From NCBI RefSeq assembly GCF_900100765.1, contig NZ_FNFO01000013.1, positions 1 through 64,000 of the forward strand: DNA of 64,000 nucleotides, read 5' to 3'. The notes beneath the pieces were generated by a model. It was not told where the DNA came from. It was given only the letters and a program-made list of their open reading frames with translations, and did no database searches. This document shows, piece after piece, positions 1,988 through 32,422 of this stretch (its first letter is position 1; the number at the start of each line of letters is the position of its first letter). This stretch comes from Catalinimonas alkaloidigena (GTDB lineage Bacteria > Bacteroidota > Bacteroidia > Cytophagales > Flexibacteraceae). A program made the position numbers and the translations under genes.

Positions 1988-3070
1988 TTATTCGATGGGC
2001 ATCAGCCAGCCGTGCGGATCTTCCGCGCGCCCGTAGCGCAGGTCGTCGAGTGCCTTGCGCAGTTGGTCGCCCACGGCGTTGTCGGTGGGACTGGGCAGGG
2101 GCAACTCTTCGCCCTGGTAGCTGATCATGGCAATCGGGGCCAGGGTGGCGGCCGTCCCGATTCCGAACGCTTCCTGCATTTTTCCGTCGCGCAGGGCCGT
2201 CACGACCTCATCGACCGTGACGCGGCGCTCTTCTACCGAGATGCCGAGGTCGCGGGCCATCTGCAACAGGCTGTTGCGCGTGATGCCGTGCAGAATGGTT
2301 TCGCTGGGCTGCGGGCTGATCAGCTTGCCGTCGATCACGAACGCCAGGTTCATGGTGCCGGCTTCTTCAATGTACTTGTGCTCCAGACCGTCGGTCCAGA
2401 TCAACTGATGGAAGCCTTGTTTCTGGGCTTTCACGGTAGGGTACAGCGCGCCTGCGTAGTTCCCGGCCGACTTGGCGTAGCCGGTGCCGCCCGGAAAGGC
2501 CCGTGTGTATTCCGTTTCGATTTTCACCCGCACCGGTTCGCTGTAGTACGCGCCTACCGGCGAAGTGAAAATCATGAACCGATACGTATCCGAAGGACGA
2601 ATGCCGATGTACTCGTCGGTAGCGAACATGAACGGACGGATGTAAAGCGACGACTGCGGGCGGTTGGGCACCCACGCTTCGTCGAGTTGTAACAGCTTTT
2701 TGAGGCCGCCTACAAAGATCTCTTCCGGAATGGTCGGCATGCACATGCGCTCGGCCGACAGGTTAAAACGCGCCCAGTTGGCCGACGGGCGGAACACCCG
2801 CACCTGCCCGGCATCGCTCCGATACGCCTTCAATCCCTCAAAAATGGTCTGACCGTAGTGAATCACCGCCAGGGCCGGATTGAATTCCATCGGGCCGAAG
2901 GGCACAATGCGCAGCTCCTGCCACTGTCCGTCGCGGTAGTCGGCAATGAACATATGATCGGAGAACTGACGGCCAAACTTCAGGTTGTCCTGATCCAACT
3001 CCGCCACACGCGACTGCGGAGTGTTTTCTATCGAGATATCAAGGGAAGTATCGATCATGATGGTATGCAT
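1988..3070 (-). CDS. ilvE: Branched-chain amino acid aminotransferase
   Basis: This 360-residue fold-type IV PLP enzyme transfers the amino group between Leu/Ile/Val and 2-oxoglutarate, the last step of their synthesis and the first of their breakdown. Features seen are G-Q-T-I-F-E-G-L-K-A-Y-R near residue 73, the PLP lysine Lys200 in G-Y-A-K-S-A-G-N-Y, and the G-T-A-A-T-L-A-P-I phosphate-binding region near the C-terminus. This is the longer eukaryote/Gram-positive-like BCAT type II arrangement. Starts at 3070 (M-H-T-I-M) and 3058 (M-I-D-T) are both possible. The gene is divergent from the sigma factor at 3557 across a 486-base gap that contains inverted repeats. Confidence 0.92.
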   Translation of the reverse strand: MHTIMIDTSLDISIENTPQSRVAELDQDNLKFGRQFSDHMFIADYRDGQWQELRIVPFGPMEFNPALAVIHYGQTIFEGLKAYRSDAGQVRVFRPSANWARFNLSAERMCMPTIPEEIFVGGLKKLLQLDEAWVPNRPQSSLYIRPFMFATDEYIGIRPSDTYRFMIFTSPVGAYYSEPVRVKIETEYTRAFPGGTGYAKSAGNYAGALYPTVKAQKQGFHQLIWTDGLEHKYIEEAGTMNLAFVIDGKLISPQPSETILHGITRNSLLQMARDLGISVEERRVTVDEVVTALRDGKMQEAFGIGTAATLAPIAMISYQGEELPLPSPTDNAVGDQLRKALDDLRYGRAEDPHGWLMPIE

Positions 3071-3556
3071 TCGTTGGAAGGGGCAAGATACGCAAATCAG
3101 TGCGAAAAAATGTGTGGCCGCCGCCGGTTTCTGCCGAGTTTTCTTCGCTTACAGGCTTCTGGAAACGGAAAAGGACACCGTTGGCGGGAGCTTCCCGCGG
3201 CGCAAAAACTATCCTGGTGCCCAAGCAGGATAGTACCTTATAGTACAGAAGAGTACAGTACGGATGCAGCACACCTCATCCATACTTTCGTGATACTGAA
3301 AGTTTCGAAGTGGCTACTTCCCCAACCACTCGTTTGAGTGCACCTCGGTAGCCGTTTTGAAGCGGACAAGTCTTGTCGAAATTTTGAGGATCTGCCTCCG
3401 TTCCGAACGCTTGTTTCGGAAGCCTGATTCGTATTGCTCTGAAAATTTTGATGGTTGCTTTTTGAGGCATGCCCGCGGCGTATGTGCGGGACCGGTATGC
3501 CTTGCTCAAAACACTGGCGAACTACTACCCTACATAATCTGATAAACAACGAACCT
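3071..3556. promoter_or_regulatory. Divergent intergenic region with two hairpins and a phased AGTAC repeat
   Basis: The gap holds three items. A 6-bp stem lies at 3184-3189/3193-3198. A 9-bp perfect stem lies at 3208-3216/3226-3234 with a 9-base loop. AGTAC then occurs at 3232, 3242 and 3252, exactly 10 bp apart, with a fourth AGTAC at 3257. TACTTTCG at 3293-3300 is a possible -7 box for the downstream sigma gene and would give a leader of roughly 250 bases. No ORF in the gap has convincing coding character. Confidence 0.5.
3243..3258. promoter_or_regulatory. 16-bp direct-repeat element, copy 1
   Basis: GTACAGAAGAGTACAG: the hexamer GTACAG twice with a 10-bp period. A copy with one difference lies at 8796-8811, upstream of the second ECF sigma gene. 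No other double copy was noticed in the window. The spacing of one helical turn suggests a protein-binding site, which is inference. Confidence 0.5.
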
Positions 3557-4150
3557 ATGCAAGCTACGCACGTCCGCTACGGAGGAACCAACGAAGAAGA
3601 AATCGCACTCTGGCGTCAGGTTGCCAAAGAAAACCAGGCCGCGTATGCGTCTCTTTTTAAGCGCTACAGCCAGATCCTCTACGGCTACGGATTGGGCATC
3701 TGTCCGGACGAAACCCTGGTCGAAGACTGCATTCAGGAGTTTTTTATGCGGTTGTGGGCGCGTCGTAAGTCCCTGTCCGAGCCGCGTTCCGTCAAAGCGT
3801 ACATGCTGGCGTCGGTCCGTCGCCTGATTTTGGAGGCGGTAGAAAGCGGCCACAAACGCACCCGCCGGTATCAGTCATCGTACTTCTATACCACCACCAC
3901 CGACCTGTCGTACGAACAGTTGCTGATTGAGAGCCAGCTGGTCGAACAGCGCAATCAAATGTTGCAGCAATACCTGGATCAGCTCACCAACCGGCAGCGC
4001 GAAGTAGTCTATTTGAGGTTTTTCCAGAACAGTAGTTTTAAAGAGATCAGCGAAACGCTCAACATCGATTTGCAGTCGGTGCGCAACCTCCTGTGCCGGG
4101 CCCTCAAAAAAATGCGTGAAGCGTCCGCCGTTATGGCCGAAGTCGCCTGA
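3557..4150 (+). CDS. ECF-type RNA polymerase sigma factor (sigma-70 family)
   Basis: 197 residues from the ATG at 3557. The in-frame start at 3455 adds a Cys-rich stretch unlike the family. Sigma region 2 spans about residues 25-95 (Y-A-S-L-F-K-R-Y, then D-C-I-Q-E-F-F-M-R-L-W) and region 4 spans about 130-190 with the helix-turn-helix F-K-E-I-S-E-T-L-N-I. The protein would redirect RNA polymerase to a specific promoter set. No FecR-type anti-sigma gene follows, unlike the second sigma gene at 8901. It sits just upstream of the GH31 gene with a terminator-like hairpin between, so it may control the locus without being cotranscribed. Confidence 0.88.
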   Translation: MQATHVRYGGTNEEEIALWRQVAKENQAAYASLFKRYSQILYGYGLGICPDETLVEDCIQEFFMRLWARRKSLSEPRSVKAYMLASVRRLILEAVESGHKRTRRYQSSYFYTTTTDLSYEQLLIESQLVEQRNQMLQQYLDQLTNRQREVVYLRFFQNSSFKEISETLNIDLQSVRNLLCRALKKMREASAVMAEVA

Positions 4151-4274
4151 CGTTTGAGGGCGCGTTGCGGGCCGCAGCGTCTCCGCATAACAGTAGACGT
4201 ACGCGGGTGGCGAGGCCCCATGCCGTGTCCCCGCACTACCGGATCGATCACGTACTTTCTTCTCTAACACTAAC

Positions 4275-4312
4275 ACGGGTGTGTTCTGGCGAAAGCGGAG
4301 CACACCCGTTTT
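4275..4312 (+). terminator. Rho-independent terminator after the ECF sigma gene
   Basis: A 12-bp stem (4275-4286 with 4298-4309, one G-T wobble) closes on an 11-base loop and is followed by TTTG. It lies 125 bases after the sigma stop codon and before the GH31 gene, so the two genes are probably separate transcription units. Confidence 0.75.
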
Positions 4313-4452
4313 GTAGGATGCCGCCGCGGTATGACCTCGCGCGAACCCCTTCTCTAATTTTAGTAAGCATCGCCTCGCCCGTAACCTTTTAGGGAGTGGG
4401 GGGCGGCGCGCTGTCGTGTTACTGGAAAGCATTACCCCACAAGTCCATCTGT

Positions 4453-6972
4453 ATGTATTTTGCCACTTCTCTTGTTTACACGTTGACACGATTCGTCGCG
4501 CCGCGCCGAGGGCGCCGACTGGGTTGCATCGGCCTTGTGCTGCTGTTGAGCACGGCGGGCGGGCCGGGAGCCCAGGCCCAAACTGCCGTGGGGGCCTACC
4601 GTTCTGGTTTCAAACACGAGGGCAACGTCGTCTCTTTTACCACTACCGAAGCCCGCGTCCGGCTGGAGTTCTGCACGCCCGGCGTGGTGCGCGTCCGCAC
4701 GAGTTGGAACGACACCTTTGCCGAGAACGAACCCTGGATGGTGGTGCGCTACGATTGGCCGCCCGTCGCCGTACAGGCTACGGAAGAAACGGAACGGTTT
4801 GTCCTGACCTCCGCCCAGTTACGCATCACCGTACAGAAAAGTCCGTTCCGCATCGACGTGGCCACTGCCGAGGGTTCGCCGCTGCTGCTGGAATCAGGCA
4901 CCGCGGGGGCCACGCAGGAAGCTGACACCGTCGCCTGTCGGAAGCAACTGGGCGCCGACGAACACTTTTTCGGCTTTGGTGAGCGGATGGATTTTCTGGA
5001 CCGGCGCGGCCGCAAAACGCGGCTGAACGTTGGGCGGGGGCAGGGGCTGCCGCACATCGTCGGTGCCTACAACGTATTGGAAGCCAACTATGCGCCGGTG
5101 CCGTTTTTTATGAGCACGCGTGGGTACGGCCTCTTTTTCCATACGGCTTACGCTACGAACTGGGACATGGGGGCGACCGATCCGAACCAGTTGCAATTCG
5201 GGGCCGAAGGGGGCGAACTGGACTACTACGTACTCTACGGCCCCACCTTTCCGCAACTCCTCGACCACTACACCGATCTGACGGGCAAAGCGCCGCTGCT
5301 GCCCAAGTTCGCGCTGGGGTTGCACGTCGGTACGTACAGCGGTGGCACCTGGGGGCACGAAGAGCTGACGTCCGATCAGTACGTGGTGGCCCTGGCGCGC
5401 CGGTTTCGGCAACTGGGGATTCCGATCGACGTGCTGCACCTCGATTCGACCTGGCGGCTGTTCGGGAAGAACGGGGGCAAGGGCGCTACGACGTTCGAGT
5501 GGCGCGAGACGTTCCAGCATCCGGAAGCGATGTTCGACAGTCTTTATGCCCTGCACCTGAACGCGGTCGGGCTTCACCTGCGGCCCCGTTTCGACAACGG
5601 CCGAACCATGAACCTGCTGGCGATGGCGCAGGAAAAAGGATTTACCTACCCCGAGGAAGACAACCCCGGCGAATTTGTCAATTTCTTTGATTCCAGCGCC
5701 GTCAACTGGTGGTGGGACCATGGCGTGATGAAGATCGCTTCGCAGGGCGCGATGTTCCTGAAAACCGACGAAGGCAGCGCGTTTGGCCACCTGGCGAACG
5801 AAAGCGAAAAGGTCGGCCCGACGGGCGAAGAAGTAAAGCGCCTGCACAACCTGTTTCCGCTGGCCTATGCCAAAGCCCCCTATGAAAAGTTTCAGGCCTA
5901 CAACGGCATCCGGGGCATGAACCACACGCGCGAGGGCTACGCCGGCATCCAGCGCTATCCGTTCATCTTCGCGGGCGACTGGCCCAGCGAGTGGCAGTAT
6001 TTCGAGCCGGTGATCAGAGCCGGGCTGAACATCGGGCTGTCGGGCGTGGGCCACTGGGCACACTGCATGGGCGGATTCGAGCACAACGCCGACCCCGAAC
6101 TCTACATCCGCTGGTGCCAGTTCGGGTTGCTGAGCCCCGTGGCGCACCTGTTCGGGATGGACCATCCGGGCTACAAAGAACCCTGGAACTACGGCGAAGA
6201 AGCGCTGCGGATTTTCAAGCAGTACGATGCCTTCCGCTACCGGCTGATTCCCTATCTCTACAGTTACACGTACGAGATGCACAAAACCGGTCTGCCGCTG
6301 ATGCGGGCGCTGGTGCTCGACTACCAGTACGACCCGAACGTGTACGAACTCACCGATCAGTACCTGCTGGGGCGCGACATGATGATCTGCCCCGTGACCG
6401 AGAAGGGCGCGCAAACCCGCGTGGTCTACCTGCCCGAAGGCACCTGGTTCAACTACTGGACCGGCCAGCGCTACGAAGGCAAGCGCTACCTCAACGTCGT
6501 TACGCCGCTCGATACGCTGCCGATTTTTGTGCGGGCCGGGGCCGTTATCCCCCAGCAGCCGGTGGTGCAGTACGTCGGCGAAAAACCGCTGGACGAACTG
6601 ACCGTCGAACTGTTTCCCGGCGAAGCGGCCTCCACCTTTACCCTTTACCAGGACGACGGCAAAAGCCTTGAGTATCAGAACGGGGCGTATGCACTTTCGA
6701 CCTTTCGCCTGGTGCCGGAAGGAGCGGGGTTGCGCCTAATCCTGGCATCGCCCGAGGGGGCGTACCGGCCGTCGCCTTTTGCGTACCGGGCGAAGATCCA
6801 CACGGACCGCGCACCGCAGGAACTCCGCGAAGGAAAAAAGAAACTGCCGTCTGTGGCGTCGCTGGGCGACCTCGACAACGGACCGGGCTGGTACTACGAT
6901 GCTGATCAACACGTGTTATGGATCAAACCCAAGGGCAAGAGCAACGCCACCGTCGAGGTGGTGGTCCGCTAA
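4453..6972 (+). CDS. Glycoside hydrolase family 31, secreted
   Basis: GH31 enzymes are retaining alpha-glycosidases (alpha-glucosidase, alpha-xylosidase, alpha-galactosidase types). The protein is about 839 residues from the ATG at 4453, with an arginine-rich n-region and a hydrophobic signal ending near A-Q-A-Q. The N-terminal beta domain contains F-F-G-F-G-E-R. The catalytic barrel has the probable nucleophile Asp439 in L-K-T-D-E-G and the acid/base Asp509 in F-A-G-D-W-P-S-E-W, followed by G-L-N-I-G-L-S-G-V-G-H-W. C-terminal beta domains carry P-I-F-V-R-A-G-A. An in-frame ATG at 4396 exists but would lengthen the signal region. The next gene starts 6 bases after the stop, indicating an operon. 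Substrate preference is not readable. The context suggests a pectin or hemicellulose side chain. Confidence 0.9.
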   Translation: MYFATSLVYTLTRFVAPRRGRRLGCIGLVLLLSTAGGPGAQAQTAVGAYRSGFKHEGNVVSFTTTEARVRLEFCTPGVVRVRTSWNDTFAENEPWMVVRYDWPPVAVQATEETERFVLTSAQLRITVQKSPFRIDVATAEGSPLLLESGTAGATQEADTVACRKQLGADEHFFGFGERMDFLDRRGRKTRLNVGRGQGLPHIVGAYNVLEANYAPVPFFMSTRGYGLFFHTAYATNWDMGATDPNQLQFGAEGGELDYYVLYGPTFPQLLDHYTDLTGKAPLLPKFALGLHVGTYSGGTWGHEELTSDQYVVALARRFRQLGIPIDVLHLDSTWRLFGKNGGKGATTFEWRETFQHPEAMFDSLYALHLNAVGLHLRPRFDNGRTMNLLAMAQEKGFTYPEEDNPGEFVNFFDSSAVNWWWDHGVMKIASQGAMFLKTDEGSAFGHLANESEKVGPTGEEVKRLHNLFPLAYAKAPYEKFQAYNGIRGMNHTREGYAGIQRYPFIFAGDWPSEWQYFEPVIRAGLNIGLSGVGHWAHCMGGFEHNADPELYIRWCQFGLLSPVAHLFGMDHPGYKEPWNYGEEALRIFKQYDAFRYRLIPYLYSYTYEMHKTGLPLMRALVLDYQYDPNVYELTDQYLLGRDMMICPVTEKGAQTRVVYLPEGTWFNYWTGQRYEGKRYLNVVTPLDTLPIFVRAGAVIPQQPVVQYVGEKPLDELTVELFPGEAASTFTLYQDDGKSLEYQNGAYALSTFRLVPEGAGLRLILASPEGAYRPSPFAYRAKIHTDRAPQELREGKKKLPSVASLGDLDNGPGWYYDADQHVLWIKPKGKSNATVEVVVR

Positions 6973-6977
6973 TCGTC

Positions 6978-8312
6978 ATGCCGATGCTGCACCGACTTTT
7001 GCTGTGGGGGGCGTGCGTGAGTGTTGCGCTAAGCAGCGCGGCGCAGCCGCTGACCCTGCCGCTTCAATTTGATTTCGGAAGTGGTCAGGCCGCTGCGGGC
7101 TACCGGCAGGTGCTGCCAACCACGACGTATTCTCCGGAACGGGGCTACGGCCTGGCGAGTGAGCAGCCGGTCAAGAGTCGCACCCGCAAGGGCAACAATC
7201 CCCTGACCGACGATTTTCTCACCTCAACGCAGCCGTTCTACTTCGTGGTGGATCTGCCCGAAGGGAATTACGAAGTTACGCTGACGCTGGGCGACCCCAA
7301 GGGCACGTCCACGACGACGGTGAAGGCTGAATCGCGACGGCTGATGCTCCACCACCTCCAAACCGCGCGGGGCGAGCAGGTGACGCGGACGTTTACAGTC
7401 AATGTCCGCACGCCCCGGATCAACGCGGAAGAGCGCATCCGTCTTAAGCCGCGCGAGCACGACTACCTGAACTGGGACGACAAACTCACGCTGGAGTTCA
7501 ACGATGCGCGTCCCTGCGTGGCGGCCCTGGAAATCCGCCGCGCCACTGCGCCTACCACGATATTCCTGGCCGGAAACTCCACGGTGGTCGATCAGGAGAC
7601 CGAACCCTGGGCGGCCTGGGGACAGATGTTGCCTTCTTTCCTGAAGCCCGATGCGGTTGTGGCAAACCTCGCCGAATCGGGCGAGACGCTGGCGGCTTTT
7701 CAAAGTGAGGGCAGGCTGGCCAAGGTGCTGAGTATGATCCAACCCGGCGATTTTCTTTTCATTGAGTTTGCGCACAACGATCAGAAGAACAGAGACCCCG
7801 CCGCCGGCGCTTACCGCGGCTACTCCGACCGGTTGCGCGAGTTTATCCGCGAGGCCCGCGCGAAACGGGCGCATCCGGTGCTGGTCACGTCGATGCACCG
7901 CCGCCGCTTCGACGAAGACGGCCACATCATCAATACGCTGGAGGACTATCCCGACGCGATGCGAAACGTCGCGCAGGAACTGGACGTGCCGCTGATCGAC
8001 CTGAATGCGATGAGCAAAACTCTATACGAAGCCATGGGCCCCGAAGACACTAAAAAAGCGTTTGTGCACTACCCGGCGGGCACGTTCCCCGGTCAGGACC
8101 AGGAGTTGAAAGACGACACACATTTCAACCCGTACGGCGCGTACGAAATGGCCCGCTGCATCGTGCAGGCGATTCAGGAGCAAGGCCTGGCCGTCGGGCA
8201 ACTGTTGCGTGACGCAATTCCCCCGTTCGATCCGGCGCATCCCGATCCGCTGGCGATGTGGCACTGGCCCGACAGTCCGAACGCCAGCCTCGTGAAACCG
8301 GACGGGAATTAA
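6978..8312 (+). CDS. Rhamnogalacturonan acetylesterase-like SGNH/GDSL hydrolase, secreted
   Basis: About 444 residues with a signal peptide ending near L-S-S-A-A-Q. An N-terminal beta-sandwich (about 25-180) begins with F-D-F-G-S-G, a pattern common in CE12-type esterases. The SGNH core has block I L-A-G-N-S-T (nucleophile Ser), block II N-L-A-E-S-G, block III F-A-H-N-D-Q and block V D-D-T-H-F-N-P with the catalytic Asp and His. CE12 enzymes remove acetyl groups from rhamnogalacturonan or xylan backbones. It starts 6 bases after the GH31 stop. ATG at 6978 and ATG at 6984 are both usable. The extension to 6918 would lie inside the GH31 gene. Confidence 0.88.
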   Translation: MPMLHRLLLWGACVSVALSSAAQPLTLPLQFDFGSGQAAAGYRQVLPTTTYSPERGYGLASEQPVKSRTRKGNNPLTDDFLTSTQPFYFVVDLPEGNYEVTLTLGDPKGTSTTTVKAESRRLMLHHLQTARGEQVTRTFTVNVRTPRINAEERIRLKPREHDYLNWDDKLTLEFNDARPCVAALEIRRATAPTTIFLAGNSTVVDQETEPWAAWGQMLPSFLKPDAVVANLAESGETLAAFQSEGRLAKVLSMIQPGDFLFIEFAHNDQKNRDPAAGAYRGYSDRLREFIREARAKRAHPVLVTSMHRRRFDEDGHIINTLEDYPDAMRNVAQELDVPLIDLNAMSKTLYEAMGPEDTKKAFVHYPAGTFPGQDQELKDDTHFNPYGAYEMARCIVQAIQEQGLAVGQLLRDAIPPFDPAHPDPLAMWHWPDSPNASLVKPDGN

Positions 8313-8326
8313 ATCGAAAGAATTGA

Positions 8327-8578
8327 TTAGCGTTTTTTCTTGAAAAAGAGAGGAGCCAAAAGAAGAACTATACTCCAACTGGCCAGTTGTGCCGTCGGCA
8401 CCAGCATGAGCGCAAGCATCGGATCGCCCCACCTGCCCACCAGACTGAAGGCCGCCCCCACTAAAAAAGACACGGCGAGCGTCAGCCCCAGACCCGTAAT
8501 TGCCCACAGCATGGGGTTACCCTTTGACTTGTAGCCGAGATAGCCGTATAACAGCGCAATGAGCAGGGCGATTATCAT
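8327..8578 (-). CDS. Small membrane protein of unknown function
   Basis: 83 residues, mostly hydrophobic, with three likely membrane segments: residues 1-15, about 24-46 and about 55-77. It ends in a run of basic residues (F-K-K-K-R), which would put the C-terminus in the cytoplasm under the positive-inside rule. It is convergent with the esterase gene, with a 14-base gap. I do not recognise the family. The regular hydrophobic pattern and lack of an overlapping gene make it likely to be real. Confidence 0.6.
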   Translation of the reverse strand: MIIALLIALLYGYLGYKSKGNPMLWAITGLGLTLAVSFLVGAAFSLVGRWGDPMLALMLVPTAQLASWSIVLLLAPLFFKKKR

Positions 8579-8900
8579 GTAGAATATAGCCAGGAAATAG
8601 GGTACCTCTCTTATCGTGCGAAGCTGGGGTGCCTACCTCAAAAGTATCTATAAGTACCTTCTTGTTATGCTCTCACCAGGTCGTATACGTTACAGTTCAG
8701 GCGTCATTTTTCCCTTAATTCTTACCGGCATAGGTTTACGAAACTTTTTAGGCGGTGCGAAATAAAAAAAGCTTGCTGGCTTGTGTAGTGTCAACGTACA
8801 GTAGAGTACAGCACACTAGCGCGCCAACTCCTGATTAATATTATACTCAACGTACGCGGTTGTAACCACCAATCCTTACCTACTAGCGCGCTCCCACCAC
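8579..8900. promoter_or_regulatory. Upstream region of the PUL sigma gene
   Basis: This 322-base gap is more AT-rich than its neighbours. It contains the GTACAG direct-repeat element at 8796-8811 and a 10-bp direct repeat ACTAGCGCGC at 8815-8824 and 8882-8891, the second copy lying only 10 bases before the sigma ATG. I could not assign a canonical -33/-7 pair with confidence. Confidence 0.45.
8796..8811. promoter_or_regulatory. 16-bp direct-repeat element, copy 2
   Basis: GTACAGTAGAGTACAG, identical to 3243-3258 except at position 7 (T for A). It lies 90 bases before the ATG of the FecI-type sigma gene. The GTACAG half-sites are 10 bp apart. Confidence 0.5.
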
Positions 8901-9482
8901 ATGACAGCCCATAGTACACAAATGACCGATTGGCTTACGCGGATTGCTCACCAGAGCGATCGGCAGGCGTTCAAACAACTTTTTGACCTGCACTTTCACG
9001 GGCTGCATGCGTTCGCCTTGCACCTGGTGAAAAACCGTGAGGTGGCCGAAGAAGTCGTTTCCGATGTATTTACCAAAGTATGGGTGAACCGCGCCACGCT
9101 CCTGCAAGTGCGCGACGTCAAAGCCTACCTCTACACGTCGGTGCGTAATCAGGGACTGAACCAACTGGCCCTGCGGCATCATCAGATGCAGACCCGCACC
9201 ACCGACCTGACGTTCGACCTGGCGGCCGACAAATCGCTGGGACCGGAGCGCACGCTGTTGTACCAGGAAATGGAGCAGGAGGTGCAAAAAGCCATCGGGC
9301 AATTGCCCGAACGGTGTCGCCTGATTTTTCAGATGGTCCGCCAGGAAGGCTTTAGCTACAAGGAAGCCGCCGAAATTCTGGGCATTTCCGTCAAAACGGT
9401 GGACAATCAACTCACCATCGCCACCCGAAAGCTGGCCGAATCGCTGCGACCGTACCTGGTGCAGCGGCAACTGGCGCACTAA
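8901..9482 (+). CDS. FecI-type ECF sigma factor of the polysaccharide-utilisation locus
   Basis: 193 residues. Region 2 (about 20-90) contains F-K-Q-L-F-D-L-H-F and E-V-V-S-D-V-F-T-K-V-W. Region 4 (about 125-180) contains L-P-E-R-C-R-L-I-F and Y-K-E-A-A-E-I-L-G-I-S-V-K-T-V. This is the Bacteroidetes-type sigma that partners FecR and SusC. When the SusC receptor senses its glycan, FecR would release or activate the sigma, which turns on the locus. ATG at 8901 and ATG at 8922 (M-T-D-W-L) are both possible. FecR follows after 81 bases, the usual order. Confidence 0.92.
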   Translation: MTAHSTQMTDWLTRIAHQSDRQAFKQLFDLHFHGLHAFALHLVKNREVAEEVVSDVFTKVWVNRATLLQVRDVKAYLYTSVRNQGLNQLALRHHQMQTRTTDLTFDLAADKSLGPERTLLYQEMEQEVQKAIGQLPERCRLIFQMVRQEGFSYKEAAEILGISVKTVDNQLTIATRKLAESLRPYLVQRQLAH

Positions 9483-9563: not shown

Positions 9564-10673
9564 ATGCTGGACGACTCTCACATGTGGACGTTAATTGCCC
9601 GGGCGCTGGCCGGCGAAGCAAGCGCAGACGAATTGCGTCGTCTGGATGCCTGGCGCTCGCAACATCCGGACAACCAGCATCTGTACGAAACGGTGCGTGA
9701 CGTCTGGACCCACCCGCCGTCGTCGTCGGCCGGGACCGGTGCCGCACAGCGCGTCTGGGAACGTACGCAAGCCCGCATGGAAGCTGCCGAACGGCAGAAA
9801 AAAGTCGTTTCGATGCCGTGGTGGCGCATGGCGGCCGCCGTTGCGTTGGTCGGTACCCTGGGACTGGCGGCCTATCAGTACGGCTGGCGCAGCGCTGAGG
9901 CGATTTCGCGCGTGGCTCAAACCGAACAGTTGGCGGCCACTCTGCCCCATGAAGCTCCGCAGTTTGAGGCGGCCGCTGTGCCCGTGACGTACCAGCAGGC
10001 GCAGAACCCGAAAGGGGTGCACACCGAATTGCAACTCGCCGACGGTACGAAAGTGTGGCTCAACGCCGACAGCCGACTGGCCTATCCCACCACCTTTGCG
10101 GACGACCGGCGCGATGTGTACCTGATTGGCGAAGGCTTTTTTGAGGTTGCGCCCGACAAGCAACGTCCGTTTACCGTCCACCTGGAAACTGGCGAAGTCA
10201 CTGTACTGGGAACGTCGTTTAATGTGCGGGCCTACCAGGACGAAACCGAAGTGACCACGACCGTGGCCGAAGGAAAAGTAGCGTTTAGTCCGGAACCGGA
10301 AGCCGATAAAAATGAACCCCTCGGCGAAAATCCGGCCACCCGGCGGACGCTTTTAACGCCTCATCAGCGGGCAGTCTATTCTAAAAAATCGGCGGAAGTG
10401 CGCAAGGAAACCTCGGTTGCCGACCTGGATTACGCCTGGGTAAACCGGAAGCTTGTTTTTGAGGAAACGCCGTTCGATCAGGTAGCCCGAACGCTGGAAC
10501 GGTGGTATGGCGTGCGGGTGCATCTGGAAACACCGCAACTGCGCAACTGCCGGTTGACCGGAACTTTTGAGAAGAAGGAGCTGAGGGAGATCATGCACCT
10601 GATTTCACTCACCCGAGACGTCGACTATAAATTCACACCGCAGGGACTGCTTATTACCGGAAGCGGGTGTTGA
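9564..10673 (+). CDS. FecR family anti-sigma factor
   Basis: 369 residues. A cytoplasmic N-terminal segment (1-85) would bind the sigma factor. One membrane helix lies at about 87-106. The periplasmic FecR domain (about 145-250) has T-E-L-Q-L-A-D-G-T-K-V-W-L-N-A and G-E-G-F-F-E-V. The C-terminal DUF4974 domain (about 290-365) has L-V-F-E-E-T-P-F-D-Q-V. DUF4974 resembles the STN fold that the downstream SusC-like receptor carries at its N-terminus, which fits a trans-envelope signalling pair. The stop is 141 bases before susC. Confidence 0.93.
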   Translation: MLDDSHMWTLIARALAGEASADELRRLDAWRSQHPDNQHLYETVRDVWTHPPSSSAGTGAAQRVWERTQARMEAAERQKKVVSMPWWRMAAAVALVGTLGLAAYQYGWRSAEAISRVAQTEQLAATLPHEAPQFEAAAVPVTYQQAQNPKGVHTELQLADGTKVWLNADSRLAYPTTFADDRRDVYLIGEGFFEVAPDKQRPFTVHLETGEVTVLGTSFNVRAYQDETEVTTTVAEGKVAFSPEPEADKNEPLGENPATRRTLLTPHQRAVYSKKSAEVRKETSVADLDYAWVNRKLVFEETPFDQVARTLERWYGVRVHLETPQLRNCRLTGTFEKKELREIMHLISLTRDVDYKFTPQGLLITGSGC

Positions 10674-29538: not shown

Positions 29539-30567
29539 CTAGAGCGAGTGGCGCCGGATGAGGGTATACGGGTTCTGAATTTTGTGCTGGCTTTTGTCCA
29601 GGATGAGTTCGGCCGCGATTTTGCCCATCCGCTCGTGGTCGGTCGAGATGACGGTGATGCCGTTGACCAGGATTTTTTTGAGCGGCGTGTCGTTGAAGGC
29701 GATGATCCCCACGTCCCGACCCAGTTCCAGGTGCTGCGTGCGGCTCTGGATGATGACGTTGGCCAGGTCCGATTCCTCAATCACGCAATACACCTCGCCT
29801 TTCGCCAGCGGCATGCCTTCTTCAAACTCGGTGATGACCTCGTGGTCGAAGCCCTTGTCCCGGCAAAAATCCTGGAAACCTTCCACCAGTTCGGGGGGGT
29901 ACGGGATGTTCTCCGGGAACACCATCACCAGTTTGCGGTAGCGGCTCAGCAGGTCCTGCCCCGAGGCCAGCGCGTCGTACAGGTCGCTGGCAAAATCCTG
30001 GAACACCGACGCATAGCCGGGTTTAAGGCCTTCGATGTCTTTGTCGAGCAACAGCAGCTGGTGGGGCGGAATTTTGCGCAGAATCTCCAGCGCCTTGGGC
30101 ATGTCGTCGTAGAAAAACGGCATAACCACAAAGTAGCCGTAGTTGCCCAGGTTGCCCTCGATGAAGCTGTGCAGCAGGTCGGCGTTGTGGTGATGGATGC
30201 GCAGGTCGATGGTGACCTCTGGCCCCATCGCCTGTTTAAAACCGTTGTAGACGCTCTTTTTGTACGCGCTGATCTTGTTGAAAATCATCAGGATTTTGAG
30301 CGACGTGTCGGTTTGCGTGCTGCACACGTAGTAGCCTTTCCCCCGTACCGATTTGATGATGCCCCGGCTCCGCAGTTCTTTGTACGCCTTCTCGACCGTG
30401 TCGCGCGCCAGCATGTACTCCATGCTCATCTCGTTGATGGACGGAATGCGCTGCCCCTGTTGCAACACGCCCGTTTCGACGTCCTGCAGAATCGAGTCGA
30501 TGATCTGTCGGTACTTCGGAACGGTAGAGTCTTCGTCGAGTGAGTTGAGCGGAAAGAAACGGTTCAT
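29539..30567 (-). CDS. GntR-family transcriptional regulator with a periplasmic-binding-like sensor domain
   Basis: 342 residues. The N-terminal winged helix (about 12-85) shows the GntR pattern K-Y-R-Q-I-I-D-S-I, G-Q-R-I-P-S-I-N-E-M-S, R-D-T-V-E-K-A-Y-K-E-L and R-G-K-G-Y-Y-V. The rest (about 90-335) resembles the LacI/GalR-type sugar-binding fold (L-I-M-I-F-N-K-I, D-V-G-I-I-A-F-N-D-T-P, I-S-T-D-H-E-R-M-G). The AraR-type combination of GntR HTH and PBP-like sensor is used for sugar control in Bacteroidota and Firmicutes. The effector is not known. Ribokinase and the PUL nearby make a pentose or pectic sugar plausible, as inference. Confidence 0.9.
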   Translation of the reverse strand: MNRFFPLNSLDEDSTVPKYRQIIDSILQDVETGVLQQGQRIPSINEMSMEYMLARDTVEKAYKELRSRGIIKSVRGKGYYVCSTQTDTSLKILMIFNKISAYKKSVYNGFKQAMGPEVTIDLRIHHHNADLLHSFIEGNLGNYGYFVVMPFFYDDMPKALEILRKIPPHQLLLLDKDIEGLKPGYASVFQDFASDLYDALASGQDLLSRYRKLVMVFPENIPYPPELVEGFQDFCRDKGFDHEVITEFEEGMPLAKGEVYCVIEESDLANVIIQSRTQHLELGRDVGIIAFNDTPLKKILVNGITVISTDHERMGKIAAELILDKSQHKIQNPYTLIRRHSL

Positions 30568-30786: not shown

Positions 30787-31332
30787 CTACTTGCGGGGAC
30801 GCCACGCCACCTCTTCGGCCTGCAACTCCTGTGCGACTTTCCGGCCCAGTACGAAAAAGTAGTCGGAGAGGCGGTTCAGGTAGGTGATGATCAGATCGGC
30901 CACGGTGTGGTGCATCTTCAACGCCACCACCCGCCGTTCGGCGCGGCGACAGACGGTCCGGGCCAGATGGCAGTGCGACACGAGCGGATGGCCGCCCGGC
31001 AGAATAAAGGCCCGCAGCTCCGGGAGTTGGGCATCCATCGCGTCCATCGCTTCTTCCAGCCGGGTCACGTCTTCGGCGTGCAGATCGGGGATGGAGGCGT
31101 TGGGCGAGGCAATGGCAGCGAGGGTCGAACCAATGGTGAACAGCCGGTCCTGAATTTCGCGCAGCAGCGTTCGTGTGGCTTCGTCGGTCAGTTGATCGCG
31201 CAGCAGCCCGACCCAGGCGTTGAGTTCGTCGACCGTCCCGTAGGCCTCAATCACCAGATCCGCCTTGGAGGCCTGGGTGCCTCCCAGTAAGGACGTAAAA
31301 CCTTGGTCGCCTTTGCGGGTGTAAATTTTCAT
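30787..31332 (-). CDS. Cob(I)alamin adenosyltransferase, PduO type
   Basis: 181 residues from the ATG at 31332. The start M-K-I-Y-T-R-K-G-D-Q-G-F-T-S-L is the family's ATP-binding N-terminus, so the upstream ATG at 31365 is rejected. Further motifs are A-Y-G-T-V-D-E-L-N-A-W and C-R-R-A-E-R-R-V-V-A-L, followed by Y-L-N-R-L-S-D-Y-F-F. The enzyme adds the adenosyl group to cob(I)alamin to make coenzyme B12, needed by methylmalonyl-CoA mutase, which is encoded at 43224 in this window. A 14-bp palindrome lies upstream at 31469-31482. Confidence 0.93.
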   Translation of the reverse strand: MKIYTRKGDQGFTSLLGGTQASKADLVIEAYGTVDELNAWVGLLRDQLTDEATRTLLREIQDRLFTIGSTLAAIASPNASIPDLHAEDVTRLEEAMDAMDAQLPELRAFILPGGHPLVSHCHLARTVCRRAERRVVALKMHHTVADLIITYLNRLSDYFFVLGRKVAQELQAEEVAWRPRK

Positions 31333-31468
31333 GAATGCAGGGAACAGATGGATTTCCGTCCGCAAGTTACGGGTTCCGGGGCAGTTGCGTGGGAAAGGGG
31401 ATCGGTGGCGAACGTTGTACCGGTGGGAGGTAGGAGTTCAGAGCTGAGAAGGAACGATTGCGGTGGTC

Positions 31469-31482
31469 GAAGAAGCTTCTTC
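31469..31482. repeat. 14-bp perfect palindrome upstream of the adenosyltransferase gene
   Basis: GAAGAAGCTTCTTC reads the same on both strands. It lies about 140 bases before the pduO-type start, in the gap after the ABC ATPase gene. It could be a regulator site. There is no T-run or other terminator sign. Confidence 0.4.
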
Positions 31483-31514
31483 ACACCTCAAACTTCGCTG
31501 ACCATACCTCTTAC

Positions 31515-31528
31515 CAACTACCAACTAC
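31515..31528. repeat. Two tandem CAACTAC units
   Basis: Two copies of the 7-mer that also ends the left-edge minisatellite (134-140). They lie just after the ABC ATPase stop codon, in an intergenic gap, which suggests that this 7-mer family normally lives between genes. Confidence 0.6.
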
Positions 31529-31533
31529 CCATT

Positions 31534-32256
31534 TCATCCCTGCACCGAACGGATGTGTTCGTTGAGGCGATCGGTTTCGATGAGGCCGTCGCGCAGGCGC
31601 ACCACGCGGTGGGCGTATTCGGCGATGTCCTCTTCGTGCGTCACCATGATGATCGTATTGCCCTGGCTGTAGAGTTTTTCGAACAGGTCCATGATGTCGT
31701 ACGACGTCTTGGTGTCGAGGTTCCCGGTCGGTTCATCAGCCAGAATGATGCTGGGGTCGTTCACCAGCGCCCGTGCAATGGCGACCCGCTGGCGCTGTCC
31801 GCCCGACAGTTCGTTGGGCTTGTGGTGCGCCCGGTCGCCGAGGCCGACGCTGGTCAGGGCCTGCATGGCGCGTTCGGTGCGGTCGGCCTTGTTGTATCCG
31901 GCGTAGATGAGCGGCAGGGCCACGTTTTCGAGCGAGGTAGAGCGGGGCAGGAGGTTGAACGTCTGGAACACGAACCCGATTTCCTTGTTGCGGATTTCGG
32001 CCAGTTCGTTTTCGGTCATGTTGCTTACGTCTTTCCCGTTCAGGATGTACTGCCCGCTGGTGGGGGTATCGAGCGCGCCGACGATGTTCATCAACGTAGA
32101 TTTCCCGGAACCCGACGGCCCCATAAAGGCGACGTATTCGCCGCGGTTGATCTGGATGGTGATCGACTTCAGCGCGTGGACCACTTCGCTGCCCATGACG
32201 TATTTCTTGGAAATTTCGCGGGTTTCGATAACGGTCGGGGAAGAGTTGCGTTGCAT
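31534..32256 (-). CDS. ABC transporter ATP-binding protein (MacB/LolD type)
   Basis: 240 residues. Walker [10 protein letters not shown] lies near residue 50, Q-loop [10 protein letters not shown] follows, then signature [15 protein letters not shown], Walker [13 protein letters not shown] and the switch His in V-T-H-E-E-D. The [14 protein letters not shown] segment is typical of the MacB/LolD branch, which powers mechanotransmission or lipoprotein release. No permease gene lies next to it, so its membrane partner is elsewhere. Confidence 0.92.
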
Positions 32257-32422
32257 AAGCGGAAGAAAGTCAGGTAGGCAAAATACGAAATCCTACCCAG
32301 GTTAGGGGGATTTTTACGCGAACGGATGGAATAGGGGATTGGTGGAATCAGGCCTGCATTACGTGCAGGCTACCGCTGCGGTTTGTGTCGCGTACAACCC
32401 CGGTGGCGGGGGCGAAAACACA

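What the first reader, a model, noticed from the sequence alone, without database searches (positions are those of the whole stretch)
3243..8811. A 16-bp phased direct-repeat element upstream of both ECF sigma genes
GTACAG(A/T)AGAGTACAG occurs at 3243-3258 and 8796-8811, 15 of 16 bases alike, each upstream of one of the two ECF sigma genes and nowhere else noticed in the window. The hexamer GTACAG repeats with a 10-bp period. At the first site AGTAC continues the same phase at 3232, 3242 and 3252. This spacing puts all copies on one face of the DNA, as expected for cooperative binding of a regulator that would coordinate the two sigma factors of the PUL.
Basis: partly seen in the sequence, partly recalled or inferred. 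Interest (0 to 1): 0.6.

Follow-up and report, generated by a model that had tools for sequence, protein, structure and literature searches.

The report
Sugar-repressor operator at two sigma genes
The repeated DNA element in front of the two sigma-factor genes is real, and it looks like a landing site for a sugar-sensing regulator (probably for rhamnose) that also marks rhamnose-breakdown genes elsewhere in the same genome, so the bacterium may tie its pectin-digesting machinery to a sugar it releases.

Summary
The 7.1-Mb genome holds one more place within one mismatch. The element is not sigma-specific. It is better read as tandem 5-bp units (SAGTA)n; the 10-bp period is two units. Five loci in the genome carry it within one mismatch (0.1-0.4 expected): the two sigma genes here; a rhamnulose-phosphate aldolase/dehydrogenase gene with a rhamnose-isomerase homologue; a run of a membrane protein, lut-type genes and gntR; and a lactonase gene. 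The GntR + periplasmic-binding-domain regulator ending that run (C6:220135) forms a clade with two regulators of other genomes that sit next to the same aldolase/dehydrogenase, with a looser array between. In a related clade, 13 of 14 loci have a SAGTA array within 1.5 kb. Best reading: operator of an L-rhamnose-responsive GntR repressor that gates two ECF sigma genes of a rhamnogalacturonan-type locus. No binding data exist. The effector, repression, and the choice between two paralogous regulators (one in the window, 29539-30567) are inferred.

The parts
3226..3265 (+). Site 1: pentamer array CAGGA TAGTA CCTTA TAGTA CAGAA GAGTA CAGTA CGGAT; core AGAAGAGTACAGTA at 3247-3260
3208..3234 (.). 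Inverted repeat ACTATCCTG-N9-CAGGATAGT overlapping the start of site 1; possible second operator (CAGGATA type) or hairpin; its significance was not tested
   Evidence: CAGGATANNNCAGGATA is repeated in genome G100, which holds the closest relative of the window's GntR
3557..4150 (+). ECF sigma factor 1 (ATG start assumed; longest ORF begins 3455)
   Evidence: PF08281 1e-15, PF04542 1.2e-9
8794..8818 (+). Site 2: pentamer array ACGTA CAGTA GAGTA CAGCA CACTA; core AGTAGAGTACAGCA at 8800-8813
8901..9482 (+). ECF sigma factor 2
9564..10673 (+). FecR-type anti-sigma factor
   Evidence: PF16344, PF04773
10815..14327 (+). SusC-like TonB-dependent transporter with STN signalling domain
   Evidence: PF07715, PF07660
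14314..16278 (+). SusD-like protein
   Evidence: PF07980, PF14322
16413..25273 (+). PUL enzymes: GH2, GH115, two GH28 (one resembling alpha-D-galacturonidase BT4155, 604 bits against a cut-off of 800)
29539..30567 (-). GntR-HTH + Peripla_BP_3 regulator encoded in the window (rival candidate for binding the sites)

Best explanation
The element is the operator of a GntR-family regulator with a periplasmic-binding-protein sensor domain, most likely the one at C6:220135 of the same genome. The operator is a run of tandem pentamers, consensus SAGTA, usually about four. Without sugar, dimers bind neighbouring pentamers (equivalent bases 10 bp apart lie on one face) and repress. When L-rhamnose or a rhamnose catabolite binds the sensor domain they let go. 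This raises rhamnose catabolism (aldolase/dehydrogenase, isomerase, FGGY kinase, lut genes) and the two ECF sigma genes of the rhamnogalacturonan-type locus in the window. Sigma 2 is further held by its FecR anti-sigma until the STN-bearing SusC signals substrate at the cell surface, so the locus would need an inside and an outside signal. Shown here: the sites, their genomic company, the conservation of such arrays beside such regulators. Inferred: binding, repression rather than activation, the effector, the choice of paralogue, the two-signal logic.
For: Own genome, AGTASAGTASAGTASAG with at most 1 mismatch: 5 loci (0.13-0.37 expected), none inside a convincing gene. They are: window 3242 and 8795; C6:272868, about 60 bp before an aldolase/dehydrogenase (969 bits to TIGR02632, rhamnulose-1-phosphate aldolase/SDR, cut-off 568) followed by a rhamnose-isomerase homologue; C6:225941, before a same-strand run of a membrane protein, lutA-like, lutB-like, lutC-like and gntR genes, facing an FGGY kinase and a class II aldolase protein, with a second weaker site at 226252; C6:15409, before an SMP-30-type lactonase gene. 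The GntR of that run groups with G203:C404 and G154:C489 at 100/99 support. In both, the next gene is the same aldolase/dehydrogenase (81% and 76% over the held part), and AGTATAGTACATAACAGC (3 mismatches to the pattern) lies between. In a related clade, 13 of 14 loci have an array within 1 mismatch inside the held 1.5-kb flanks; the 14th (G100:C206) has an exact one 1.6 kb away. Over 82 distinct regulator loci, AGNNNAGNNNAGNNNAG occurs in the 400-bp flanks of 20 (11 of them in that clade, 9 of the other 68) against 1.6 in shuffles for all 82; controls: AG at periods 4, 6, 7 in 1, 2, 4 loci; GA at period 5 in none; CA at 5 in 3; AC at 5 in 11, which partly counts the same arrays. A listed GntR of this family lies within 6 kb of the aldolase/dehydrogenase in 28 of 50 genomes that have it (194 searched).
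Against: No experiment. Upstream regions of the aldolase/dehydrogenase across the order show only a weak excess of phased AG (18 of 30 loci could be parsed; 4 of 5 in phase in 2 against 0.4 expected, 3 of 5 in 12 against 6.9), so the rhamnose operator as such is not well conserved. In this genome C6:220135 itself is about 50 kb from that gene and is not among the 28. The most regular arrays belong to a clade whose sugar is uncertain (one D-apionate-lactonase-like neighbour, 303 bits against a cut-off of 750), so the repeat alone does not name the sugar. The kinase is a poor match to rhamnulokinase (41.7 bits against 528) and the isomerase is below its cut-off (501 against 647). Site 1 is about 290 bp from the sigma-1 start and could instead act on the divergent gene at 1988-3070. 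I looked for arrays chiefly beside GntR genes, so their presence there is partly a matter of where I looked; the first lead (L005, L006) came from an unbiased pattern search.
Confidence: 0.66

Rival explanations
1. The cognate regulator is the window's own GntR/Peripla_BP_3 protein (29539-30567), alone or together with the C6 paralogue; the CAGGATAGT half at 3226-3234 would be its part of a composite site 1.
For: It is 21-26 kb from the sites, in the same window. Its closest relative (67%, G100:C570) is divergent from the aldolase/dehydrogenase gene, with SusC/SusD-type genes beyond it. G100 has 4 exact and 8 one-mismatch CAGGATANNNCAGGATA places; two of the one-mismatch places lie upstream of that SusC. 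Site 1 begins with CAGGATA.
Against: No SAGTA array with at most 4 mismatches in the 4-kb loci around the window GntR (L099, L100) or its G100 relative (L101). In this genome CAGGATANNNCAGGATA has no exact place and one one-mismatch place, inside a 485-aa ORF. The G100 total (31 places at up to 2 mismatches) stands against 14 in the reversed control, and some places fall in ORFs. Site 2 has no CAGGATA. It is in a different clade from C6:220135.
Confidence: 0.2
2. A regulator of another family (for example an OmpR/PhoB-type response regulator, whose sites are 10-11 bp direct repeats, or an ECF sigma promoter/auto-regulation element) binds the repeats.
For: Three AGTAC at exact 10-bp spacing at site 1 is an architecture known for response regulators such as CpxR (recalled, no call). 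Two of five sites precede sigma genes.
Against: Three of five strong sites are not at sigma genes. In the unbiased relatives' search the only two hits outside long open frames and tRNA-Gln genes lie in the same gap beside a GntR/Peripla_BP_3 gene. The spacing does not fit two ECF promoter boxes (recalled).
Confidence: 0.11
3. Chance or a non-regulatory repeat.
For: One-mismatch 16-mers do occur in relatives inside frames and tRNA-Gln genes: 26 of 28 places.
Against: Five strong sites where at most about 0.4 is expected, clustered on sugar genes and sigma genes, and arrays kept between genera where the flanking bases differ.
Confidence: 0.03

Closest known systems
AraR subfamily of the GntR family (Bacillus subtilis AraR)
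   Same: GntR winged HTH plus LacI/GalR-type C-terminal domain, controlling sugar and polysaccharide genes (PMC4494728, passages read; domains tested)
   Different: AraR operators are palindromic (recalled); here tandem pentamers
NanR (E. coli), FarR, NagQ: GntR-family regulators with direct-repeat operators
   Same: Repeats in one direction; [quoted passage not shown] PMC4494728, passages read)
   Different: NanR, FarR and NagQ are FadR- or HutC-type proteins (PMC4494728 passage) with other repeat units (TGGTATAW, TGTATTAWTT, TGGTATT)
L-rhamnose regulators (RhaR and others) of other bacteria
   Same: Regulons with the bifunctional aldolase/dehydrogenase RhaEW; DeoR-type RhaR sites are direct repeats of 10-11 bp period (PMC3870299, passages read)
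   Different: Those newly described there are LacI, DeoR and AraC proteins; the word GntR does not occur in its held text. Bacteroides RhaR is AraC-type; FucR and ManR are GntR-family regulators in B. thetaiotaomicron (PMC3878776, passages read)
HTCS and SusR regulators of Bacteroides PULs
   Same: Regulate PULs from direct-repeat sites (PMC3878776, passages read)
   Different: Mean spacing 21 bp (HTCS) or 67/77 bp (SusR), different proteins

Membership tests
GntR family, AraR-type (proposed binder C6:220135) | N-terminal GntR winged HTH | tested here: met
   PF00392 2.5e-12, residues 23-86
GntR family, AraR-type (proposed binder C6:220135) | C-terminal LacI/GalR-like periplasmic-binding domain | tested here: met
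   PF13377 8.1e-11, residues 219-333
GntR family, AraR-type (proposed binder C6:220135) | Palindromic GT..AC operator usual in the family | tested here: not met
   Conserved arrays read as direct pentamer repeats, e.g. CAGTAGAGTAGAGTAGAG, without twofold symmetry (by eye); direct-repeat exceptions are known in the family
L-rhamnose regulon | Site upstream of rhamnose catabolic genes | tested here: met
   C6:272868 before the aldolase/dehydrogenase (969 bits to TIGR02632, cut-off 568) with a rhamnose-isomerase homologue next (501 bits, cut-off 647)
L-rhamnose regulon | Response to rhamnose | not testable with these tools
   needs expression or binding data
RhaR of LacI, DeoR or AraC type | Regulator of one of these families beside the rhamnose genes | not tested
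   Only GntR relatives were sought: within 6 kb in 28 of 50 genomes; the other 22 and other families were not examined
HTCS or SusR site | Two half-sites about 21 or 67/77 bp apart | tested here: not met
   Period 5/10 bp

The most novel reading that the evidence does not exclude
A subfamily of GntR/Peripla_BP_3 regulators in this order reads arrays of tandem 5-bp units, with clade-specific unit sequences (SAGTA; CAGGA/TAGCA; CAGGA-GAGTT-CAGAA-CAG). It uses them to put ECF sigma/FecR/SusC circuits of PULs under the cytoplasmic level of the released monosaccharide, so that the locus needs an inside and an outside signal.
Probability: 0.45. Interest if true: 0.58.

Novelty: new variant of a known kind. 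Interest (0 to 1): 0.48.

Why it matters
PUL regulation in Bacteroides is described mostly through HTCS and SusR regulators (PMC3878776, passages read) and ECF/anti-sigma systems (recalled) that sense the polymer or its oligomers. A monosaccharide-sensing GntR operator in front of the sigma genes themselves would add a layer above them. It would explain how rhamnose catabolism and rhamnogalacturonan digestion, encoded on two contigs of this assembly, are switched together. The pentamer arrays also give a simple handle for predicting regulons of this protein family.

Tried and rejected
Sigma-specific element: rejected. Ten-bp unit: replaced by five after the relatives' arrays. Relatives' one-mismatch hits as evidence in themselves: rejected. 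Of 28 places outside this genome, 21 overlap a stop-free frame of at least 141 aa, 5 are tRNA-Gln genes and 2 are the GntR gap. The reversed-pattern control (3 places against 31 with this genome's) is not a fair one, since it contains CATG, and I do not lean on it. Three-mismatch sites in the own genome (35 places at up to 3 mismatches against 18 in the control): of 19 new ones given as loci, 14 lie in an ORF and 5 do not, and 5 more were not given as loci; not used, except the one beside 225941. The one two-mismatch place that is not part of a strong site lies in a 667-aa ORF. CAGGATANNNCAGGATA as this genome's second operator: no exact place. The sixth exact place of AGWAGAGTACAGNA (C4:529012) lies at the start of a 159-aa ORF and was dropped as chance (0.2-0.5 expected). 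A first parse of regulator ORFs (22 loci, 10 with hits, 0.46 expected) missed most loci through a too narrow search string and is superseded. One search took 89 locus ids; L118 gave no ORF and 6 duplicates were merged, leaving 82. These 82 are best hits of three searches, not a random sample. In one search, 12 of 30 loci were lost because a motif string was not found.

Literature (open-access library only): no paper held all of 'apiose', 'Bacteroides', 'GntR'; 'GntR', 'polysaccharide utilization loc', 'ECF sigma', 'rhamnose' gave only PMC3878776. Listings, and the passages read of PMC3878776, PMC4494728, PMC3870299 and PMC5507952, did not describe pentamer arrays. No paper was read whole.

Full report
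Observation. The two 16-mers exist at 3243-3258 and 8796-8811 and are unique in the window apart from an overlapping partial copy. In the whole 7.1-Mb genome the pattern with at most one mismatch occurs three times: the two in the window and C6:15410, against an expectation of 0.4-0.6 for one mismatch and about 0.01 for exact copies. The genes downstream are ECF-type sigma factors; the second is followed by FecR, a SusC-like protein with an STN domain, and a SusD-like protein. The enzymes that follow (GH2, GH115, two GH28, one resembling the alpha-D-galacturonidase model BT4155 at 604 bits, cut-off 800) point to a rhamnogalacturonan-type substrate. That is inference from families.

From the relatives to a regulator. 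Of 98 genomes searched (97 relatives and this one), 24 had hits within one mismatch. Of the 28 places outside this genome, 21 overlap long open frames and 5 are tRNA-Gln genes. The remaining two, L005 (G087) and L006 (G062), from different genera, lie in the same place: the divergent gap between a regulator with a GntR HTH and a Peripla_BP_3 domain and a Gfo/Idh/MocA dehydrogenase followed by a sugar ABC transporter ATPase (families were searched for L006 and L096 only). A search with that regulator gave a clade of 14 loci; 13 have an array of tandem pentamers SAGTA within one mismatch of AGTASAGTASAGTASAG in the held 1.5-kb flanks, up- or downstream of the gene, for example CAGTAGAGTACAGTAGAG and CAGTAGAGTAGAGTAGAG. 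The 14th (G100:C206) has an exact copy 1.6 kb from the gene. Other clades show other pentamers: CAGGA GAGTT CAGAA CAG or close variants downstream of the regulator in L127, L128 and L129, and AGAAC AGTAC AGAAC AG in L144. Over 82 distinct regulator loci, four AGs in 5-bp phase occur beside 20, against 1.6 expected from shuffles; 11 of the 20 are in the clade just named and 9 among the other 68. AG at periods 4, 6 and 7 gave 1, 2 and 4 loci, GA at 5 none, CA at 5 three; AC at period 5 gave 11, which partly counts the same arrays. The 82 are best hits of three searches, and related loci are not independent.

Back to this genome. AGTASAGTASAGTASAG with at most one mismatch occurs at five loci (0.13-0.37 expected). 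None lies in a convincing gene; two overlap ORFs of 77 and 90 aa that I do not count as genes. One is about 60 bp upstream of a bifunctional rhamnulose-phosphate aldolase/short-chain dehydrogenase (969 bits to TIGR02632, cut-off 568; 1366 bits to NF006191, cut-off 1240), followed by an L-rhamnose isomerase homologue (501 bits, cut-off 647). One heads a same-strand run: a 468-aa hydrophobic protein without Pfam or NCBIfam match (a permease by its look only), a lutA-like gene (CCG domain), a lutB-like gene (420 bits, cut-off 445), a lutC-like gene (LUD domain) and gntR. It faces an FGGY kinase (rhamnulokinase model only 41.7 bits, cut-off 528) and a class II aldolase-domain protein, and a weaker second site lies near the kinase. 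One is before an SMP-30-type lactonase gene. The remaining two are the sigma sites. The five share AGWAGAGTACAGNA; that 14-mer occurs at a sixth place, C4:529012, at the start of a 159-aa ORF, which I take as chance.

Which regulator. The genome has two such regulators: C6:220135, at the end of the run just named, and window 29539-30567. In a tree of 82 proteins, C6:220135 groups with G203:C404 and G154:C489 at 100/99. In both of those the next gene is the same aldolase/dehydrogenase (81% and 76% identical over the held part), and both have AGTATAGTACATAACAGC, three mismatches from the pattern, between the two genes. This makes C6:220135 the first candidate. The window protein belongs to another clade. 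Its closest relative (67%, G100:C570) is divergent from the aldolase/dehydrogenase, with SusC/SusD-type genes beyond. There the repeat is CAGGATANNNCAGGATA, with 4 exact and 8 one-mismatch places in G100 (31 at up to two mismatches against 14 in the reversed control; some places fall in ORFs), including an array upstream of SusC. Site 1 of the window begins with CAGGATAGT, and an inverted copy stands at 3208-3216. A composite site for both paralogues is possible, but the CAGGATA repeat has no exact copy in this genome and its single one-mismatch copy is inside an ORF. In 28 of 50 genomes with the aldolase/dehydrogenase (194 searched), a listed GntR of this family lies within 6 kb (a lower bound, since the lists were cut). 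This genome is not among the 28.

Mechanism. Most likely repression by a dimeric GntR protein over several adjacent pentamers, relieved by rhamnose or a product of it. Repression and effector are inferred from the family and from context. E. coli NanR, a GntR-type repressor, binds a (GGTATA)3-repeat operator with three dimers (PMC8012715, start of abstract in the listing), so multi-unit repeats are possible for this fold. Site 2 is 90 bp and site 1 about 290-300 bp before the sigma starts. The divergent gene at 1988-3070 (aminotransferase class IV) is the other possible target of site 1.

Against it. Upstream regions of the aldolase/dehydrogenase across the order show only a weak phased-AG excess (18 of 30 loci parsed: 4 of 5 in phase in 2 against 0.4 expected, 3 of 5 in 12 against 6.9). 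The most regular arrays belong to a clade whose sugar is uncertain. Conservation in front of orthologous sigma genes was not tested: relatives of sigma 2 found in named genomes were at most 42% identical and their upstream regions were not examined; sigma 1 was not searched. No binding or expression data exist.

Known and new. GntR proteins with LacI-type C-terminal domains form the AraR subfamily (PMC4494728, passages read). Direct-repeat operators in the family are known (NanR, FarR, NagQ; same paper). The new rhamnose regulators described in PMC3870299 are LacI, DeoR and AraC types, and GntR is not mentioned in its held text (passages read). The B. thetaiotaomicron survey lists RhaR as AraC and FucR and ManR as GntR (PMC3878776, passages read). 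So the kind is known; the pentamer arrays, the rhamnose assignment to a GntR, and the link to ECF sigma genes look new within the searches made.

Noticed in passing
window 3208-3234: Inverted repeat ACTATCCTG-N9-CAGGATAGT directly at the start of site 1; resembles the CAGGATA repeats of genome G100, which holds the closest relative of the window's GntR.
   Followed up: partly
G000:C14:82816-82832 (L189:10817): TTTACAGTAGAGCACAG (3 mismatches) lies at the end of a FecR gene just before SusC in another sigma-FecR-SusC locus.
   Followed up: partly
G000:C2:315702-315718 (L171): TCTACAGTAGAGTAGAA (3 mismatches) lies outside long ORFs, upstream of a 93-aa and a 349-aa ORF on the same strand; could be a sixth site.
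   Followed up: no
L096 (G062:C44) and L097 (G087:C143): The related-clade regulator sits with a sugar ABC transporter, Gfo/Idh/MocA dehydrogenase and, in L096, a D-apionate-lactonase-like protein (303 bits, cut-off 750), perhaps an apiose-type pathway.
   Followed up: partly
L187:10507-10543 (G100:C570): Long pentamer array (CAGGA CAGAG CAGGA TACCG CAGCA TACTA CAGGA, minus strand) upstream of SusC, next to the aldolase/dehydrogenase and the closest relative of the window's GntR.
   Followed up: partly
window 31303-32277 and other long antisense ORFs: Many long open frames opposite genes (this one lies opposite an ABC ATPase gene); the ORF list is not a gene list here.
   Followed up: no
G000 whole genome: 66 places match sigma-70 region 4 (62 over the Pfam cut-off), a large sigma set.
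   Followed up: no
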